Assembly (NCBI RefSeq): GCF_022429645.1
Contig: NZ_CP092480.1
Coordinates: forward strand, 1 to 64,000
Source of the DNA: Lutibacter sp. A80
Lineage (GTDB): Bacteria; Bacteroidota; Bacteroidia; Flavobacteriales; Flavobacteriaceae
DNA length: 64,000 bases
Direction of reading: 5' to 3'
Numbering within the stretch: the first letter of the stretch is position 1; the number at the start of each line of letters is the position of its first letter. Positions 25,199 through 46,447 of the stretch are shown piece after piece. The position numbers and the translations under genes are program-made. The notes beneath the pieces are model-generated. The model made no database searches, was not told the DNA's origin, and saw only the letters and a program-made list of their open reading frames with translations.

Positions 25199-26050
25199 TT
25201 AAAGCTGAATAATGACATCATTGTTCAGCTTTTTTGATTTGTATTGTTTTGGTTTAATTTTTTTTTGTGCGTGCATTTGTATTGGTGTTAGCATTTCGTT
25301 AGATAAATGAGGTCTTATATTGTTGTATATTTCTATTGCATTTTTGACCAGTTTCTTCTTTACTTTAAAATCTTGAATCTTCTGTGCTACACTAAATTCC
25401 TGTTTTAAAATTCCATTTATTCGCTCTGCAACTGCATTTTCATATGGATCATATTTTTCAGTCATACTAGGCTTAATCTCATTGTTTTCTAATAGTCTTT
25501 GATATTCATTCGAGCAATATTGCAACCCTCTATCAGAGTGATGTATTAATGGACTTTCTTTGTATTTTCTATTATTTATAGCCATTTCCAATGCCCTCAA
25601 TGAACCATCCATTGATAAAGATTTTGACACATCATATCCTACAATCTTTTTAGAATAAGCATCTGTGATTAATGCCAGATACGAAGGGTTGGTTCTCGTT
25701 CCGATATATGTAATATCACTCACCCAAACTGATTCAGGCCCTTCTATATCCATTGAGCTGACAAGGTTTCTGTGCTTTCTAAATCTATGATGAGAGTCTG
25801 TAGTTATGTGGTAGCTTCTTTTAGGTATTATTAACATATGGTTAGCTTTTAGTATTCTAAACAATTTATCTCTTCCTACTTTTAATAGTGATAATTTATC
25901 CTTTAACAGAAAGTATAATTTCTTACCACCCAATCTTGGCATTAGCATCCGAATATCACGAACCAAAACGATAACTTTTTGTGCTACAGTTTGTTTATGA
26001 AGTCTTGATTTTATGGATCTATAGTAAACCTGTCTGTTTACCCCGAGCAA
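25199..26050 (-). CDS. IS3-family transposase, OrfB (DDE integrase core)
   Basis: At least 283 aa from a TTG codon. The same frame stays open upstream past the frameshift site at 26116-26122, so the true product is probably an OrfAB fusion of about 430 aa. An HTH-21-like region lies near the start (VLVRDIRMLMPRLGGKKLY), then the rve/DDE core: Asp in WVSDITYIGT, Asp in HHSDRGLQYCS and Glu in NAVAERINGILKQEF. The core is complete with no stop, so the element may be active. Confidence 0.93.
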   Translation of the reverse strand: MLGVNRQVYYRSIKSRLHKQTVAQKVIVLVRDIRMLMPRLGGKKLYFLLKDKLSLLKVGRDKLFRILKANHMLIIPKRSYHITTDSHHRFRKHRNLVSSMDIEGPESVWVSDITYIGTRTNPSYLALITDAYSKKIVGYDVSKSLSMDGSLRALEMAINNRKYKESPLIHHSDRGLQYCSNEYQRLLENNEIKPSMTEKYDPYENAVAERINGILKQEFSVAQKIQDFKVKKKLVKNAIEIYNNIRPHLSNEMLTPIQMHAQKKIKPKQYKSKKLNNDVIIQL

Positions 26051-26064
26051 ATCACAGGTAGAAA

Positions 26065-26499
26065 CTAAAGTTTCTTTATATTCTTCTTTGAAGATGTTGA
26101 TAAGTCGGGTGTGTAATTTTTTCTTATTTGAATATCATATTCCTTTTCTGCCATATCAACAAGCATATCGAAAATAATAACCTTTTTATCAGCACGTTCT
26201 GCTAGATGTTCAGCTCTAGCTTTCTGTTTTTCAAGGAGCTTTATTTTAGCTTCAAGCTCAAGTATTTTTTGTTCTGGAGTTTTTGACATCGTTTTTGGAA
26301 CTTGGTTTTCCCAATCAAAGTTACCATATTTTTGCAACCATTTGGTTACTGTAGCGTCTCCCTGAATACCATATTTACGCTTGGCTTGGGTTTTTGTTAA
26401 AAATCCTTGTTCTACTTCTTCAACTAATTGAAGTTTAAAAGAAAGCGAGTAATCTTTTTGAGTTCGCTTTGCTGCACCTGATTTGTCTGATGTTTTCAT
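26065..26499 (-). CDS. IS3-family transposase, OrfA (helix-turn-helix)
   Basis: 144 aa DNA-binding subunit. A helix-turn-helix of the transposase-8 type lies at about 16-60 (SFKLQLVEEVEQG ... ATVTKWLQKYG), followed by a leucine-zipper-like coiled coil (about 73-105, EQKILELEAKIKLLEKQKAR) that pairs OrfA and OrfAB. It ends 15 bp before the annotated OrfB start, in the frame from which OrfB is reached by a -1 shift. Confidence 0.9.
   Translation of the reverse strand: MKTSDKSGAAKRTQKDYSLSFKLQLVEEVEQGFLTKTQAKRKYGIQGDATVTKWLQKYGNFDWENQVPKTMSKTPEQKILELEAKIKLLEKQKARAEHLAERADKKVIIFDMLVDMAEKEYDIQIRKNYTPDLSTSSKKNIKKL
26116..26122 (-). promoter_or_regulatory. Candidate programmed -1 frameshift heptamer
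   Basis: On the minus strand the heptamer A AAA AAT lies in the correct phase of orfA (codons AGA AAA AAT). After a one-base backward slip, reading continues AAA AAA TTA CAC in the OrfB frame without a stop, as in other IS3 elements that use A-rich slippery sites. Confidence 0.6.
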
Positions 26500-26514
26500 T
26501 ACACTTGTGTTTTA

Positions 26515-37651: not shown

Positions 37652-37735
37652 GGAGAGGTGCCAGAGTGGTAATGGAGCAGATTGCTAATCTGTCGACGGG
37701 TAACTGTCGCCAGGGTTCGAATCCCTGTCTCTCCG
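37652..37735 (+). tRNA. tRNA-Ser(GCT)
   Basis: Acceptor stem GGAGAGG / TCTCTCC, anticodon loop TTGCTAA with anticodon GCT, long variable arm typical of class II tRNA, and T arm CAGGGTTCGAATCCCTG. No 3' CCA is encoded. Confidence 0.95.
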
Positions 37736-37755
37736 CAAAATTAAGATAATCATTT

Positions 37756-37830
37756 CGGGGTGTAGCGTAGCCCGGTTATCGCGCCACGTTTGGGACGTGG
37801 AGGCCGCAGGTTCGAATCCTGCCACCCCGA
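37756..37830 (+). tRNA. tRNA-Pro(TGG)
   Basis: Acceptor stem CGGGGTG / CACCCCG, discriminator A, anticodon stem CACGT / ACGTG enclosing TTTGGG with anticodon TGG, and T arm GCAGGTTCGAATCCTGC. Confidence 0.95.
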
Positions 37831-37875
37831 CAAAATGATAAATTATAAATGATTTATCTTATTTTTTGAAATAAT

Positions 37876-37949
37876 GGTCGCGTAGCTCAGCTGGATAGAG
37901 CATCTGCCTTCTAAGCAGACGGTCACAGGTTCGAATCCTGTCGCGATCA
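37876..37949 (+). tRNA. tRNA-Arg(TCT)
   Basis: Acceptor stem GGTCGCG / CGCGATC (one G-T pair), D arm GCTCAGCTGGATAGAGC, anticodon loop CTTCTAA with anticodon TCT, and T arm CAGGTTCGAATCCTG. It marks the left edge of the accessory stretch. Confidence 0.95.
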
Positions 37950-37973
37950 CTACAACACTTATCAAACGGTGGT

Positions 37974-40168: not shown

Positions 40169-40537
40169 ATGAGCAAAGAAAAACTAATAAATATTATTGC
40201 GGCACCTATTAGCGAATTAAAAAAGTTGAAAATAGGGATAATGGTTAGAGCAACATTACCCCTAATTCTTAAATTGGAATTAATAACAGATCTTGAAATT
40301 GAAAGATTGCAAAAGTCAGATTATAGCAAAATGACATTCGACTTAAATTATCCTGTTCTTAAAAAAGTAGATGAAAAAATATCGATAGTTGAGAATAGAA
40401 CAATAGGTAAATATACCAGGTATTATGCAAAGCCTCAAAAAAATAAGAATTCACATTATTTAATAACAAGCGAATGGTATGATCTAAATCAAGAGGATTA
40501 TATTAGATGGTTAAAAAGGAAAGTAAAAACGGATTAA
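40169..40537 (+). CDS. Unknown 122-aa protein preceding the McrBC-like genes
   Basis: Not recognised. 122 aa, basic, no signal or membrane segment. The N-terminal half is helical (IIAAPISELKKLKIGIMVRA). The C-terminal half (about 52-118) is a compact pattern with RYYAKPQKNKNSHYLITSEW and a final YIRWLKRK, which could be a small winged-helix or beta-rich module. It lies 68 bp upstream of the McrB-like gene on the same strand, so it may be a component or regulator of that locus. No function is claimed. Confidence 0.7.
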   Translation: MSKEKLINIIAAPISELKKLKIGIMVRATLPLILKLELITDLEIERLQKSDYSKMTFDLNYPVLKKVDEKISIVENRTIGKYTRYYAKPQKNKNSHYLITSEWYDLNQEDYIRWLKRKVKTD

Positions 40538-40605
40538 AGAATTATATAGCCATCTAGATAAATAAAAAGTATTAATTTTATAATAAAATAAAGAGTAATC
40601 TTCCT

Positions 40606-43302
40606 ATGTTTATTGACCCAAATAACCTTTATTCAGAGTATAATAATTCTAATATAAAAGATGAAGTTAAAGATGCTGCAAATTTCTTTTTAGAAATTTT
40701 TAAATATAATAAGATTTTTAATATTGAATTAAAGAATAAAGGAGATAAGATTGATATTCAAATATCTTTAAACGATGAACGTTGGTATGATATTTTTGGA
40801 CATCGAACAACACATCCTTTTTCTTTACTTGTAGGAGTAAATTCCATGACATTTTATTTTAGAATTAATCATGTTTTTTTTAACGATGGTAGTTCTGATT
40901 TGGCTATTATAAAATCTAAAACTAAAAAACTAGGAGGGGAAAGCTTTCTAAGGTTATATAATATTGAGGATACAATAAAAATGATCGATTTTGTATTTAA
41001 TCAAAAAATGGGTTTGAAAACACCGTTGAATGTTCAATCTAATCGAATAGAAACGAAAGGTTTAAAAATAAAAAATATGCTATTTAATAAAGTGACTCTT
41101 GAAAATATAAAAACCGCAGTTAAGGAATTTAATGAAAAAGGAACTCCTGAAGGGTTTAGCACCTCCAAATATTATGATATAAAAATTGAAGGCGTTTTGT
41201 ACCCGCCAAAACCCATTATGGCCATTGCCAATTATTATGCTACGGGTAAAGAAATTGAAAATTATTTTCCAGGAGGTATAAATACGCCGTGTTTTAAAGC
41301 TTATGAACGATTAGGAATTGAAATAGTAACTAAGTCAAATAAAATGGATTCATTAAATATTTTTCAAATTATAGTTTCAAAAGGTCATTCTGATAAAGCC
41401 GGAAACTATTTAATTGCTAAAATGCAAATTATAGAAAATGGTTATTTATTATTGAAAGGATCTTATATTTTTAAAGAACCTAAGCCAAGTTTTTTAATTC
41501 ATTCATATTTTAAGCTTATTTCTAGTTTTTTAAATGATAAGTATGTAAATGATACTTCATTTGGTGAATTTTATGTATTAAAAAAAGATATTTTATTCAA
41601 TTCACCTTCTGCAGCTGCTTCAATGGTGTTAAATAGAGCAGCAAATGGACCAAATGAATGGAAGACTATAGGAGGTGTTACTCTCAGGGAATGTGAGAAA
41701 AAGTTTAATTTTAGTGAAATTGTAGGGAAATTTTTAAAACAAGCAAAAACAACCAATCTAAAAACAAAAAGTTATCCTAAAATTTATAGTGAATTTAAAG
41801 TTAAAGTAAGTTTTGGAGCTGGAAATCAAGCCAAAATTCCTTGGATTGCATTGTTAAAAGAGCCTAATGAAGTTACAGAAGGTATTTATCCTGTTTATCT
41901 TTATTTTAAAAGTATAGAAAAATTAATATTAGCGTATGGATTAAGTGAAACAACAAATCCAGTAGCTCAATGGAATATTGATAACCCAGTTACTATAACT
42001 AATTTTTTTTACAAAAATAACTTAGGGAAACCGGATAGGTATGGCAGTTCTTTTATCTACAAGGTTTATGATGTAAATAATTTGCCTGATGAAATGATTT
42101 TAAATGATGAGTTGGATATGCTTTTAGATTTTTATAAAAATCAAGAAACTCCTATTATAGATACTGAAATTGAGAATTTAATTGAACAAGAAGATTTTCA
42201 ATTGTCAAAATTTATTGAAGATACAAAAGCATCAGGCTTGCTATTCACAGATACATTGTTAACACGCTTCGTAAGCTCACTAATTACAAAGCCATTTGTA
42301 TTGTTGAGTGGATTATCGGGATCAGGTAAAACAAAATTAGCACAAACCTTTGCAAAATGGGTATGCGAAACTGATAAACAATATTGTGTGGTACCCGTTG
42401 GAGCAGATTGGACCAATAGAGAACCCTTATTAGGGTATGAAAACGCATTGAATAATGAAGAATATATTTTACCAGAAAATGGTGCTTTACAGCTAGTTAT
42501 CAATGCTGATCAAAACTTAAATAAACCTCATTTTTTGATTTTGGATGAAATGAATTTAAGTCATGTGGAACGTTATTTTGCGGACTTTTTAAGTGTTATG
42601 GAATCCAAAGAAAAATTTAAACTTCACAGCGATCTTGGAGCTGTTAAATCAACAGTACCTTCAGAACTCAGCTGGCCAAAAAATTTATTTGTAATTGGTA
42701 CCGTAAATATTGATGAGACTACTTATATGTTTAGTCCGAAAGTATTGGATAGAGCCAATGTTATTGAGTTTAGAGTTCAAGAGGAAGAAATAGCTACTTT
42801 TTTAAATGCGCCAAACGATATTAATTTCACTAAACTAATTGGAAATGGAAGTACTATGGCGGTGGACTTTATTAAAATGGCAAGCAATGGAACCAATGAT
42901 ACTATTTCTCCAGAATTGAATGAAACCTTAGTCAAGTTTTTTACTCAGTTAAAGAAAACAGGTGCTGAATTTGGGTATAGAACAGCAATGGAAATTCATC
43001 GCTTATTTCATCAATTAGAGGTGGTAAATTCAGAATTAACAACCAATCAAAAAATAGACATTGCCATTATGCAAAAGCTATTGCCTAAGTTGCATGGCTC
43101 AAGAAGGAAACTGTGTCCAGTGTTAGAGAATTTGGGAGATTTATGCGTGCAGGAAATAGATGTTAAAAAAGAGTTTTTTGAAAACAATGAAGAGCTAAAT
43201 TTTGAAATAGATAACATTAGATATCCATTGTCTCTTGAAAAGATAACTAGAATGTACAAAGGAGCCATAGATAACGGATTTGCAAGTTACGCTGAAGCAT
43301 AG
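40606..43302 (+). CDS. McrB-like AAA+ GTPase with multi-domain sensor region
   Basis: 898 aa motor of a type IV (modification-dependent) restriction system. Order: an unrecognised N-terminal domain (1-140); a ScoMcrA-type head-like domain (about 163-239, YDIKIEGVLYPPKPIMAIAN); a DUF4357-like module (about 331-361, SPSAAASMVLNRAANGPNEW); an MrcB_N/DUF3578-like domain (about 388-500, VSFGAGNQAKIPWIALL); and the AAA+ domain with Walker A GLSGSGKT (569-576), Walker B LILDEMN (Asp647-Glu648) and NIDETTYMFSPKVLDRAN with Arg716. In McrB the N-terminal part reads modified DNA and the ring drives the nuclease. The nuclease gene follows after 3 bp. Confidence 0.88.
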   Translation: MFIDPNNLYSEYNNSNIKDEVKDAANFFLEIFKYNKIFNIELKNKGDKIDIQISLNDERWYDIFGHRTTHPFSLLVGVNSMTFYFRINHVFFNDGSSDLAIIKSKTKKLGGESFLRLYNIEDTIKMIDFVFNQKMGLKTPLNVQSNRIETKGLKIKNMLFNKVTLENIKTAVKEFNEKGTPEGFSTSKYYDIKIEGVLYPPKPIMAIANYYATGKEIENYFPGGINTPCFKAYERLGIEIVTKSNKMDSLNIFQIIVSKGHSDKAGNYLIAKMQIIENGYLLLKGSYIFKEPKPSFLIHSYFKLISSFLNDKYVNDTSFGEFYVLKKDILFNSPSAAASMVLNRAANGPNEWKTIGGVTLRECEKKFNFSEIVGKFLKQAKTTNLKTKSYPKIYSEFKVKVSFGAGNQAKIPWIALLKEPNEVTEGIYPVYLYFKSIEKLILAYGLSETTNPVAQWNIDNPVTITNFFYKNNLGKPDRYGSSFIYKVYDVNNLPDEMILNDELDMLLDFYKNQETPIIDTEIENLIEQEDFQLSKFIEDTKASGLLFTDTLLTRFVSSLITKPFVLLSGLSGSGKTKLAQTFAKWVCETDKQYCVVPVGADWTNREPLLGYENALNNEEYILPENGALQLVINADQNLNKPHFLILDEMNLSHVERYFADFLSVMESKEKFKLHSDLGAVKSTVPSELSWPKNLFVIGTVNIDETTYMFSPKVLDRANVIEFRVQEEEIATFLNAPNDINFTKLIGNGSTMAVDFIKMASNGTNDTISPELNETLVKFFTQLKKTGAEFGYRTAMEIHRLFHQLEVVNSELTTNQKIDIAIMQKLLPKLHGSRRKLCPVLENLGDLCVQEIDVKKEFFENNEELNFEIDNIRYPLSLEKITRMYKGAIDNGFASYAEA

Positions 43303-43305
43303 AAT

Positions 43306-45582
43306 ATGATAGGGAAAAGTTCCATTGTAATAGCATTAGATAATCTTAAAGAAGATTTAAAACTTTTTATAGATGATAGGAAGCACAATACTTTGTTTCA
43401 TAGGGAAGATGCAATTCAAAATAATGAAGCACCTTATCAACTACAAGAAGGTAATTTTTACGATTATGAGTTTAGCAATCCAGACTATTTTTTTCAACGA
43501 AGTGAGATTGTTCAACCACATCGTCGAAAAAGGTATTCAGGGCAAATAGCACCAAATATTTATGTGGGAACCTTAACCCTTGAAATTTATAAAGAGGGAA
43601 TTGATAAGCCAATAGGAGAATTAAAACTAGAAGTACAATCCATAAAGGCTACATATCGTGAAGATTATAGGTATATGCTGGAGAGTATCACCGAAAAATG
43701 TACCGATTTAATCCTACAATCAAACGCCCCAGTAAGCCATTCTTTTGAAACAGATTACAATACTGATAGTAAAACATTATACCAACGCTTTGCTTTCATA
43801 AAATCCATAATTCAATCAGATGATTTTGATGAAGCAATTCACAGAATAATCACATCTCCAACAACAATTTGGAAGGAAAAAGAAGAGCTAGTAGATGTTA
43901 GAAAAATTAAGCGTTTTAATGTGTCTACTGTAAAACAATTGTTAAATGCATCGAATAGATTACCTCTTGGTTCAGAACATCCATTAACTAAAAGAGGTCT
44001 TACTACTGTTGCAGGAAAAATAAATTCCAATAAAAAAATAGAAAATGTAGATACTTCTGAAAATAGGTTTATCAAACACGCATTGAAGATTTTTTTGAAG
44101 TTTTGTATAGATATTCAAAAACATAAGAATGCAACAGAAAGGTTACAAAAAGAAGCAGGATCAGTTGTTTATATGTTGGAAAGTCATTTACAACATAGTT
44201 TATTTAAACAAATATCCAGACCTGATACCTTAAAATTAAACAGTCCAATTCTTCAAAGAAAAGAAGGATATCGAGAAGTGTTAAAAGTATGGTTAATGTT
44301 CGATTTGGCAGCTAAATTAATTTGGGAAGGTGGTGATGATATTTATAGTGGAGGTAAAAAAGATATTGCGACTTTATATGAATATTGGCTGTTTTTCACC
44401 CTTCTTGATTTGTTTAAAAAGAAGTTTGAAATAGCTCCCAAGGCTTTAGAAAAGTTGACAAATTTCGATTCAAAAACCAAGAATTTAAACCTGCAATTGA
44501 AACAAGGTAAATTTACAGCACTTCAAGGGGTTTTTAAATCACATTCGCGGTGCCTTAATGTAAAATTTAATTATAACAGAAGTTTCTCAGGATCATCAAT
44601 ATATCCAAATTCAGGAAGCTGGACTACTGCAATGCGGCCAGATTACACACTTTCATTTTGGCCCAAAGAAATAAAAGAAAAAGTAGCAGAAGAAACAGAG
44701 CAAATAGTGCACATTCATTTTGATGCCAAATACAAAGTGAATGAGATTAAGGAAATTGTTGGTGATAATTTAAAAACAAATGAAGAAGAGATCTCAGAAG
44801 AAAAGCTAGAACATAAAAAAGGCATTTACAAAAATGCTGATTTACTAAAAATGCACGCTTATAAAGATGCAATAAGAAGAACGGGAGGAGCGTATGTGTT
44901 ATATCCAGGAACTGAACAAACAACAAAGATGGGGTTTCACGAGATTTTACCGGGTCTAGGTGCATTTTCTGTAAAACCTTCTAAAACAAATGTGGAAACA
45001 AGCCATCTTGAAGCATTCATAGATAAAGTAATTGCGCATTTTGTCAATAGAGCCACTCAACGTGAAAATCTCGCTGTAAAATCATATGATATTCATAAAA
45101 CAGCCATTATAAATAAACTGAAAGAACCAATACCAGAATATCTAAATAACAAAAAGTTGATTCCAGATGAAACGTCTATTTTGATTGGGTATTACAATTC
45201 AGAAGAACAGTTTAATTGGATAAATACAAAGAAGTTATATAATTTTAGAATGGGAAGTACTTCAGGATCTTTAATATTAGATAAAGAAACAGTAGATGCA
45301 AAATTTTTATTACTACATGGAAGAGGGGCGCAACATTCAAATGAATTATGGAAAATTATAAGTAAAGGTCCTAAAGTGTATTCTAAAGAGAATTTGATTT
45401 CAAAAGGTTATTTAAACCCTTCTTCCGATCATTATTTAGTTATTGAAATTGAAAAAGTTGATTTACAGAAATTTGGAAACAGAAAATGGAATTTTAAAAA
45501 TCTCAAAAATTATAAAAAAGGAAGGGCTTCATCTTTACCTTTTACTTGTACATTAACCGAATTGATGCAAAACGCTATTTAA
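43306..45582 (+). CDS. McrC-like DUF2357/PD-(D/E)XK nuclease with extra C-terminal domain
   Basis: 758 aa partner of the McrB-like motor. An N-terminal DUF2357-type region (about 1-300) precedes a PD-(D/E)XK nuclease core: ATLYEYWLFF with Glu359, then HIHFDAKYKV with Asp473 and Lys475. The helix ENRFIKHALKIFLKF (about 248-262) is typical of these McrC relatives. A further domain of about 135 aa (623-758, ILIGYYNSEEQF ... FRMGSTSGSL) has a beta-rich look reminiscent of PUA/EVE-like readers, an unproven idea. It is probably translated together with the motor gene; neither has frameshifts. Confidence 0.87.
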   Translation: MIGKSSIVIALDNLKEDLKLFIDDRKHNTLFHREDAIQNNEAPYQLQEGNFYDYEFSNPDYFFQRSEIVQPHRRKRYSGQIAPNIYVGTLTLEIYKEGIDKPIGELKLEVQSIKATYREDYRYMLESITEKCTDLILQSNAPVSHSFETDYNTDSKTLYQRFAFIKSIIQSDDFDEAIHRIITSPTTIWKEKEELVDVRKIKRFNVSTVKQLLNASNRLPLGSEHPLTKRGLTTVAGKINSNKKIENVDTSENRFIKHALKIFLKFCIDIQKHKNATERLQKEAGSVVYMLESHLQHSLFKQISRPDTLKLNSPILQRKEGYREVLKVWLMFDLAAKLIWEGGDDIYSGGKKDIATLYEYWLFFTLLDLFKKKFEIAPKALEKLTNFDSKTKNLNLQLKQGKFTALQGVFKSHSRCLNVKFNYNRSFSGSSIYPNSGSWTTAMRPDYTLSFWPKEIKEKVAEETEQIVHIHFDAKYKVNEIKEIVGDNLKTNEEEISEEKLEHKKGIYKNADLLKMHAYKDAIRRTGGAYVLYPGTEQTTKMGFHEILPGLGAFSVKPSKTNVETSHLEAFIDKVIAHFVNRATQRENLAVKSYDIHKTAIINKLKEPIPEYLNNKKLIPDETSILIGYYNSEEQFNWINTKKLYNFRMGSTSGSLILDKETVDAKFLLLHGRGAQHSNELWKIISKGPKVYSKENLISKGYLNPSSDHYLVIEIEKVDLQKFGNRKWNFKNLKNYKKGRASSLPFTCTLTELMQNAI

Positions 45583-45796
45583 TAAATTACAGTTTACAAT
45601 TCATTACATAAAAATGTTTAGTGAACATTTTAACAATTAAGCAAACTGAGAGTAGGTATATAAATCGAGGTTATTTATTTATAGAATAAAGTCAATTTCA
45701 CTTCATTTTTAAAAGTTAACCAACCTAAATTTAACATATTGGCAACTTTTTAATAATCAATCTATTTTTTAACTTTATATATTAATTCAATTCAAA

Positions 45797-46084
45797 ATGA
45801 TTGGAGCAACAATAGGAGATATTGTCGGATGATTCTACGAGTTCAACAATTACAAAAGTAAAGAATTTAAACTATTTCAAGAGAAAAGCACATTTACAGA
45901 CGATACAGTAATGACAGTTATTATTGCAGACTTTCTATGTTGTGGACACAGGAATCTTGGTCCAGCAAGATGCATTTCATATCTACATAAATGCTATAAG
46001 AAATTTCCAAAAGAATCTTACGGTGCTAAGTTTATACAATGGATAAAACAGTTTGCTAAAATATCAATAAATATAGTTGAATAG
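45797..46084 (+). pseudogene. Broken ADP-ribosylglycohydrolase (DraG family) gene
   Basis: The reading MIGATIGDIVG-stop-FYEF, then FTDDTVMTVIIADFLCCG, is the N-terminal signature of ADP-ribosylglycohydrolases, including the TDDT metal-binding motif. A TGA interrupts codon 12 (45830-45832) where the family has a serine or similar residue. The frame ends at 46082 after about 95 codons, whereas family members have about 250-300. Downstream DNA shows no continuation, so the 3' part is deleted. It sits between the McrBC-like locus and the sensor kinase. Confidence 0.8.
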
Positions 46085-46447
46085 ACAGTTTTAAAAATAC
46101 CAAGCAATATTTAAGGCAAGTACTAATATAAATGTTTCTATCTAAAGATGAAATTATTAAAACTCTTAAAATTATTGCAAAAAGGTAAAAAAAGAGAAGT
46201 GGAACTTAAAACCAAATTAAAATAAGCCCAATGCTTTTATTAATAAATTAAAGTGTAAAATAGTACCTCCTTTAGTAGTATTCCATTTAGTTGTAATGCT
46301 TTATGGGTTATTTTATATAAAAGCTAGATAATTCAATAATAAATAGATAGCTGTAAATCTAGTAATTTTATGTAAAAGTTATTTTAATAAGTCCAAAGCA
46401 AAAAAAAATGTGAAAGTTTTAAAAAAAAACTGTAATTTAGTAGGGCA
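46085..46447. other. Non-coding remnant region, 363 bp
   Basis: No gene visible between the truncated glycohydrolase and the sensor kinase. Short open stretches (for example around 46132-46186) are too short and compositionally biased to call. Confidence 0.5.

What the first reader, a model, noticed from the sequence alone, without database searches (positions are those of the whole stretch)
40169..45582. Three-gene McrBC-like locus with an unusually layered sensor on the motor
The McrB-like protein stacks, from the N-terminus, an unrecognised domain, a ScoMcrA-head-like domain, a DUF4357-like module and an MrcB_N-like domain before the AAA+ ring; the nuclease partner follows 3 bp later. Standard McrB has one N-terminal reader. 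Several stacked candidate modified-base readers in one motor suggest either broadened recognition or a variant type IV system. The domain assignments are from motif memory (VSFGAGNQAKIPWIALL for MrcB_N; SPSAAAS for DUF4357).
Basis: partly seen in the sequence, partly recalled or inferred. Interest (0 to 1): 0.7.

Follow-up and report, generated by a model that had tools for sequence, protein, structure and literature searches.

The report
McrBC defence motor with four-layer sensor
This is a bacterial gene pair of the kind that defends cells by cutting chemically modified (phage-like) DNA; its DNA-reading front end is built from four stacked modules that near relatives keep, drop or exchange, so the machine is of a known kind while this arrangement is a new variant on a little-studied motor branch.

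Summary
The 898-aa protein is a McrB-type AAA+ motor, and its McrC nuclease gene starts 3 bp downstream. Its N-terminus carries four segments: an orphan domain N1 (1-150), a ScoMcrA-head-like domain (154-247), a DUF4357 module (263-364) and a DUF3578/ADAM domain (370-512). Three have profile support: head vs ScoMcrA E=7e-4, DUF4357 E=5e-15, ADAM vs E. coli McrB E=5.5e-28. N1 is coding but without a convincing homologue in the sets searched. The reading needs trimming: only ADAM belongs to a family with a shown modified-base pocket, the ScoMcrA head has no known function, the DUF4357-RAMA link is not significant, and ORF122 is not kept beside the two nearest relatives. New points: (i) the motor has the shortened NxD signature, a branch described in 2024 as uncharacterised; (ii) among 23 NxD motors, head and ADAM come and go without significant tie to the motor tree, and head+ADAM also sits on one NxxD motor; (iii) the ADAM residue at E. 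coli Tyr41 is Ala, a change reported to compromise binding in E. coli, while the 5mC-contacting Tyr64 and Leu68 are kept. New variant of a known kind; function inferred, not shown.

The parts
40606..43302 (+). McrB-like AAA+ motor, 898 aa, NxD signature
   Evidence: ORF; families; Walker A residue 569, Walker B from 644, GTVNIDET from 698
40606..41055 (+). N1: orphan N-terminal domain, residues 1-150, coding, no convincing homologue found
   Evidence: two weak matches taken as chance; codon use; low-confidence models
41065..41346 (+). ScoMcrA-head-like domain, residues 154-247
   Evidence: alignments; 5zmm E=7e-4; profile matches in relatives
41392..41697 (+). DUF4357-containing module, residues 263-364
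   Evidence: PF14267 E=5e-15; E=1e-16 on the piece; alignment with a GIY-YIG protein, L006
41713..42141 (+). MrcB_N/DUF3578 (ADAM) domain, residues 370-512; A405 at E. coli Y41, Y428 at Y64, L432 at L68
42238..43299 (+). AAA+ ring domain, residues 545-898; Walker A 569-576, N701-I-D703-E704 signature
43306..45582 (+). McrC-like nuclease, 758 aa: DUF2357 (79-329) and PDDEXK_7 (356-537); D446...D473-A-K475 present
40169..40537 (+). ORF122: small protein upstream; membership in the system doubtful

Best explanation
This is a two-gene McrBC-type (type IV) restriction system of the NxD motor branch. The McrB hexamer is expected to bind modified-cytosine DNA through its ADAM domain, and to be switched by McrC into NTP-driven movement that leads the PD-(D/E)XK nuclease of McrC to cut. 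The three further N-terminal modules (orphan N1, head, DUF4357 module) are most likely extra nucleic-acid-contacting or specificity-setting modules on the same motor. In this family such modules are gained, lost and exchanged while motor and nuclease stay conserved. Shown here: domain identities of head, DUF4357 and ADAM; intact motor and nuclease motifs; modularity among relatives. Inferred: DNA restriction, the base read, and any role of N1, head and the DUF4357 module.
For: ADAM matches E. coli McrB-N at E=5.5e-28 and keeps the residues at Y64 and L68, which contact the 5mC methyl group (PMC3874153, passages). Walker A, Walker B, the signature asparagine and the PD...DxK motif are intact. 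A McrC homologue lies in 22 of the 23 NxD loci counted, about 1 kb away in L060 and L061; in L047 the held stretch ends before it (for L008 on the same contig as read in L071). Against the nearest named relative (Lutibacter agarilyticus, L010) head is 81%, ADAM 73% and AAA 83% identical, while N1 and the DUF4357 module have no match and a different segment lies between head and ADAM. On the tree of the 23 NxD motors, head and ADAM each need 6 changes, against shuffled means of 7.8 and 7.9, with 12-13% of 300 shuffles as low. L026 has head+ADAM on an NxxD motor. The host genome (one contig) has no C5-cytosine methyltransferase (PF00145) match; the control search found it in 10 of 14 genomes.
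Against: E. coli Tyr41, which fills the gap left by the flipped base, is Ala405 here; Y41A and Y41Q compromised binding in E. coli (PMC3874153), so this ADAM may bind weakly or differently. No NxD motor had been characterised when PMC11090510 was written, so GTP use and DNA movement are extrapolated. The NCBIfam McrB model is matched far below its cut-off. N1 has no convincing homologue and only low-confidence models (pLDDT 36 and 48). The one other copy found with head, DUF4357 and ADAM (G023) is broken, so the four-layer form is seen intact in one gene only.
Confidence: 0.7

Rival explanations
1. The extra modules are not readers. Head, the DUF4357 module and N1 serve assembly, spacing or regulation, and ADAM alone sets specificity.
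For: The ScoMcrA head has no known function and is flexibly attached (PMC6224610, passages). Relatives with ADAM alone exist (L013, L016, L057). RAMA similarity of DUF4357 is not significant.
Against: The modules recur on different enzymes that act on nucleic acid: head on NxxD motors and in front of an HNH-type C-terminus by eye (L051), DUF4357 on a GIY-YIG protein (L006). Three head-bearing NxD motors lack ADAM (L018, L020, L022), so something else must give specificity there.
Confidence: 0.35
2. It is a three-gene system in which ORF122 is a working part.
For: ORF122 ends 68 bp before McrB on the same strand. In G319 a 65% homologue abuts, in convergent orientation, a gene that by eye is the McrC of another McrBC whose motor has a head.
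Against: Neither of the two nearest relatives of the motor has ORF122 beside it (L010; G023), and another homologue stands beside housekeeping genes by eye (L031). The domain also forms the C-terminus of unrelated proteins.
Confidence: 0.1
3. It is a relative of CoCoNuT systems that targets RNA, since it shares the NxD motor branch.
For: The signature is NIDE, matching the NxD motif usually followed by E.
Against: It carries an ADAM DNA-binding domain and an McrC with intact PD-(D/E)XK motif. No RNase model was matched in the three proteins. NxD motors outside CoCoNuTs are described in the same paper.
Confidence: 0.07
4. The locus is decaying and no longer works.
For: The G023 relative is broken; a flank holds what looks by eye like a gene remnant.
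Against: All three reading frames are open, codon use is coding-like across the modules, and motor and nuclease motifs are intact.
Confidence: 0.08

Closest known systems
EcoKMcrBC (E. coli K-12 McrB/McrC)
   Same: ADAM/DUF3578 domain ahead of an AAA+ motor; McrC with DUF2357 and PD-(D/E)XK type nuclease.
   Different: Three more modules in front of ADAM; NxD instead of NxxD signature; Ala in place of Tyr41; below the cut-off of NCBIfam's McrB model.
NxD-branch McrB GTPases (Bell et al. 2024, PMC11090510)
   Same: NxD motif followed by E.
   Different: No CoCoNuT layout recognised; small DNA-binding-type modules incl. ADAM sit on an NxD motor, whereas the paper calls such small modules typical of canonical McrB. 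Its supplementary tables were not read.
ScoMcrA (Streptomyces coelicolor)
   Same: N-terminal head-like domain (E=7e-4).
   Different: No SRA or HNH model among the Pfam hits of the window protein; motor-driven two-gene system instead of one polypeptide.
GIY-YIG proteins with C-terminal DUF4357
   Same: The same ~100-aa DUF4357 module (L006, 35% identity).
   Different: No GIY-YIG domain here; the module sits between head and ADAM on a motor.
PADLOC PDC-M26A / PDC-S14 candidates
   Same: AAA part matches PDC-M26A (E=1e-48), DUF4357 part matches PDC-S14 (E=2e-21).
   Different: These are candidate families in PADLOC, and neither best stretch covers the whole protein.

Membership tests
Canonical McrBC (EcoKMcrBC type) | ADAM/DUF3578 reader on McrB | tested here: met
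   MrcB_N over cut-off, 3ssc E=5.5e-28
Canonical McrBC (EcoKMcrBC type) | AAA+ motor with Walker A, Walker B | tested here: met
Canonical McrBC (EcoKMcrBC type) | NxxD signature motif | tested here: not met
   GTVNIDET, i.e. NxD followed by E
Canonical McrBC (EcoKMcrBC type) | score over the cut-off of NCBIfam's McrB equivalog NF008457 | tested here: not met
   120.9 bits against 637
Canonical McrBC (EcoKMcrBC type) | McrC with DUF2357 and PD-(D/E)XK | tested here: met
Canonical McrBC (EcoKMcrBC type) | GTP-dependent cleavage of modified DNA | not testable with these tools
   needs biochemistry
NxD branch of McrBC | NxD signature, usually followed by E or D | tested here: met
   GTVNID also in the other 22 motors counted
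NxD branch of McrBC | grouping inside the published NxD clade on a motor tree | not tested
   no published NxD reference sequences were placed on the tree
CoCoNuT | long coiled-coil fused to the motor and tandem nucleases (HEPN or other) | tested here: inconclusive
   no such family hit in three proteins; no coiled-coil predictor was run
ScoMcrA | head domain | tested here: met
   E=7e-4 with a 22-row profile; 0.039 with 11 rows
ScoMcrA | SRA and HNH domains | tested here: not met
   one search lists none in the 898-aa protein at E up to 10
ScoMcrA | sulfur-binding domain (SBD) | tested here: inconclusive
   no Pfam hit names it, but whether the library holds an SBD model was not checked
RAMA | match to PF18755 over cut-off | tested here: not met
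   E=0.19, 12.1 bits against a cut-off of 35.2
DUF4357 | match to PF14267 over cut-off | tested here: met
   55.6 bits against 38.4

The most novel reading that the evidence does not exclude
A coincidence-reading restriction motor: the ADAM domain of this clade is weak by itself (Ala, Gln, Lys or Met where E. coli has the gap-filling Tyr41), and firing needs joint binding by ADAM and one or more of head, DUF4357 module and N1, so that swapping modules retunes what the NxD motor attacks.
Probability: 0.15. Interest if true: 0.72.

Novelty: new variant of a known kind. Interest (0 to 1): 0.5.

Why it matters
The NxD motors were described in 2024 as uncharacterised (PMC11090510, section 7 read). 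This family offers a natural series on one motor backbone (ADAM alone, head+ADAM, head+DUF4357+ADAM, head without ADAM), in which the job of each module can be tested by deletion and exchange. It also gives the ScoMcrA head, which had no known function in 2018 (PMC6224610), a wider setting: 11 of 198 genomes drawn from the host's phylum, host included, hold a match, several of them in front of McrB-type motors.

Tried and rejected
N1 as DUF5655: suggested by eye from the predicted secondary structure; rejected, because hhalign scored 10.4 against shuffled copies reaching 19.8. The DUF5655 side of that test held only two sequences, so it is a weak test.

N1 by structure: the AF2 model of 1-521 had pLDDT 35.7 and that of 1-150 had 48.4. 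Foldseek found nothing at E<=0.001 in PDB or BFVD. Five of the first 17 PDB rows are titled as E2 (CDC34) or Tsg101 UEV domains (E 0.08 to 0.97, TM at most 0.38). At this model confidence that is a lead only. The best BFVD row was an uncharacterised phage protein at E=0.0045.

N1 by sequence: no match in 295 other phylum genomes or in viral contigs; only matches of E 0.7 or worse in phages and plasmids. Two weak genome matches were taken as chance: L007 (residues 87-156, E=3e-4 for one genome, 60 genomes searched; sequence seen, not pursued) and L084 (residues 9-76, E=9e-4 for one genome, 319 searched), which lies in an ORF that reads as an amylase.

G023 contig break as a shufflon: rejected. 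The two contig ends look by eye like the ends of an insertion sequence inside the gene; the window held only short two-copy repeats.

N1 against the G023 N-terminal segment: no significant similarity. Only the part after the in-frame stop was compared.

PDB search with the DUF4357 profile gave only weak rows, the best a large toxin at E=0.01; taken as chance and not followed.

Viral scans for N1, DUF4357 and ADAM found no relatives; the head scan found two.

Rows dropped before the count of 23 motors: L025/L027 (pieces from one genome cut at contig ends, G216), L004 (same protein as L010 as far as held), L026 (NxxD), L011 (distant, outgroup only), and the window's own repeat loci. L008 was scored as head-bearing because the head lies on another contig of the same genome (L003). 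Many of the heads and ADAMs counted were themselves rows of the profiles A3 and A4, so their matches are by construction; L059 and L057 were not and matched.
Full report
1. What is there. The 898-aa protein matches DUF4357 at 317-360 (E=5e-15) and MrcB_N at 365-449 (E=1e-13), both over Pfam's cut-offs. Residues 373-510 match the crystallised E. coli McrB DNA-binding domain at E=2e-26 (5.5e-28 when given alone). NCBIfam's McrB model is matched at E=6e-35 but at 121 bits against a cut-off of 637. The 758-aa protein has DUF2357 (E=1e-40) and PDDEXK_7 (E=3e-26), with an intact RPD...DAK motif. ORF122 has no Pfam, PADLOC or NCBIfam match. In the host genome (3.93 Mb, one contig) the motor protein has one match, itself.

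2. The head. Residues 154-247 have no convincing Pfam match. I aligned them with 10 relatives, then with 21. The 11-row profile found full-length ScoMcrA (5zmm residues 4-94) first at E=0.039; the 22-row profile found it at E=7e-4, with the next row at 0.045. The ScoMcrA paper calls the head small, of unknown function and flexibly attached (PMC6224610, passages). In 198 genomes drawn at phylum level, 11 including the host hold a head match. Of the loci read, several carry it at the N-terminus of McrB-type motors (L047-L050, L052-L054), and one in front of a C-terminus that by eye is HNH-type (L051).

3. The DUF4357 module. It extends over about 263-364: PADLOC PDC-S14 (266-365, E=2e-21) and PHROG 12629 (271-366, E=5e-13) cover the same stretch. 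It is 35% identical to the C-terminus of a GIY-YIG protein (L006). RAMA scored E=0.19 here and 0.063 in L006, both far below cut-off, so a link to RAMA is a hint only. Reading of 6mA by RAMA itself is disputed (PMC11037411, passages). DUF4357 is listed among McrB 'aliases' in the CoCoNuT census (PMC11090510, passages), so DUF4357 on McrB is not new as such.

4. ADAM. The review PMC3874153 (passages) reports that E. [quoted passage not shown] The phmmer alignment, counted by hand, places A405, Y428 and L432 at Y41, Y64 and L68 (positions). In 13 ADAM domains read the Y41 position is Ala in 4 (window, L008, L010, L026), Gln in 6 (L013, L014, L016, L017, L025, L059), Lys in 2 (L015, L047) and Met in 1 (L057); none has Tyr. 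Most of these thus carry naturally the very residues that weakened E. coli McrB. The review calls this residue non-conserved, so it may only shift context preference; and ADAM-only relatives have Gln or Met there too, so the residue does not track the presence of extra modules.

5. N1. Residues 1-150 have no convincing match in Pfam, PHROGs, phages, plasmids or viral contigs, or 295 other phylum genomes. Two weak matches elsewhere (L007; L084) were taken as chance; see Tried and rejected. Codon use in this frame scores 0.238 bits per codon and is negative in the other two forward frames, like the verified modules (the best reverse frame scores 0.023). N1 is therefore very probably real coding sequence. 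AF2 models are of low confidence and fold searches gave no significant match.

6. The motor. [quoted passage not shown] That paper sets the small modular DNA-binding domains of canonical McrB against the coiled-coil layout of the NxD CoCoNuT clade. The window protein has the former on an NxD motor. I did not place it on the published tree.

7. Relatives. Motor searches gave matches in 15 of 349 family genomes (E<=1e-30) and 8 of 325 class genomes (E<=1e-40), host included in each. A scan of genome contigs with the whole protein found one locus, Lutibacter agarilyticus L010. From these, and I kept 23 NxD motors (dropped rows are listed under Tried and rejected). Ten have a head, 11 an ADAM and seven both (L008 by inference from two contigs). 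All 23 read GTVNID. Layouts: ADAM alone (L013, L016, L057); head-ADAM (L014, L015, L047, L059); head-other-ADAM (L010); other-ADAM (L017); head without ADAM (L018, L020, L022); neither (L019, L021, L023, L024, L056, L058, L060, L061, L062); and the DUF4357 layer in the window and G023 only. A McrC homologue was found in 22 of the 23 loci. L026 carries head and ADAM on an NxxD motor, so the same pair occurs with both signature forms.

8. Modularity measured. On the motor tree of the 23, head and ADAM each need 6 changes; shuffled labels gave means of 7.8 and 7.9, and 12% and 13% of 300 shuffles were as low (7 and 6 on the tree with the outgroup). Module content is thus not significantly tied to motor ancestry at this sample size; 7 of 21 inner branches of the tree had full support, so the tree itself is only partly resolved. 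Against L010 the window is 81% (head), 73% (ADAM) and 83% (AAA) identical, with no match for N1 or the DUF4357 module; McrC is 82% identical. Against G023 it is 80% (head), 72% (DUF4357 module), 84% (ADAM) and 88% (AAA, partial) and 90% in McrC, with a different N-terminal segment. The G023 gene is broken by an in-frame stop in its N-terminal segment and by an insertion-sequence-like interruption between head and DUF4357 part.

9. ORF122. It is not next to the motor in L010 or G023 (a 50% homologue lies about 10 kb away). In G319 a 65% homologue abuts, convergently, a McrC-like gene (by eye) of another McrBC whose motor has a head. The same domain ends DUF2075-like, HNH-like and nuclease-like proteins by eye. 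I take it as a neighbour, perhaps part of the same defence traffic, but not as a shown part of this system.

10. How it likely works. By homology to E. coli and T. gammatolerans McrBC (PMC7680126, passages), a McrB ring is stimulated by a basic residue of McrC and drives cleavage by the McrC nuclease. The host genome has no C5-methyltransferase match (PF00145), where the control finds one in 10 of 14 genomes, which fits a system that would attack such marks; N4-cytosine methyltransferases were not searched. What head, the DUF4357 module and N1 do is unknown.

11. Novelty. Reader variety on McrB is well known: DUF3578, YTH and B3 (PMC7680126), EVE with further domains often present (PMC7641849, passages). 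In the paper searches, in an open-licence library only, neither the listings nor the passages I saw describe this layering, ADAM on an NxD motor, or the ScoMcrA head on McrB. I did not read those papers whole, and supplementary tables, including those of the McrBC census, could not be read, so this is no proof of novelty. I rate it a new variant of a known kind.

Noticed in passing
window 40169-40537; loci L030-L041: The ORF122 domain, without a Pfam match in the window protein, recurs as a stand-alone protein and, by eye, at the C-terminus of DUF2075-like, HNH-like, PD-(D/E)XK-like and PurN-like proteins.
   Followed up: partly
L003, L008, L071, L072 (G023): A second species of the genus has a motor gene with a different N-terminal segment, head, DUF4357 and ADAM, broken by an in-frame stop and an insertion-sequence-like interruption.
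   Followed up: partly
L026: An NxxD motor with the same head+ADAM pair.
   Followed up: no
L021: An NxD motor whose N-terminus matches a phage-integrase SAM-like domain over Pfam's cut-off (PF02899, E=2.4e-5).
   Followed up: no
L051 and L043: Head domains in front of an HNH-type C-terminus and of a nitrilase-like protein, the latter parts named by eye.
   Followed up: no
window 45780-46085: Short frame that by eye resembles the start of an ADP-ribosylglycohydrolase, truncated; likely a gene remnant.
   Followed up: no
window 25202-26511: Two overlapping frames that by eye look like an IS3-type transposase pair.
   Followed up: no
window 37652-37950: tRNA cluster Ser-Pro-Arg about 2 kb upstream of the locus, a possible landing site; not tested.
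   Followed up: no
L075 7970-11200: Another head-bearing McrB-like motor (head match E=6e-29) with a McrC-like gene by eye, beside an ORF122 homologue in G319.
   Followed up: no
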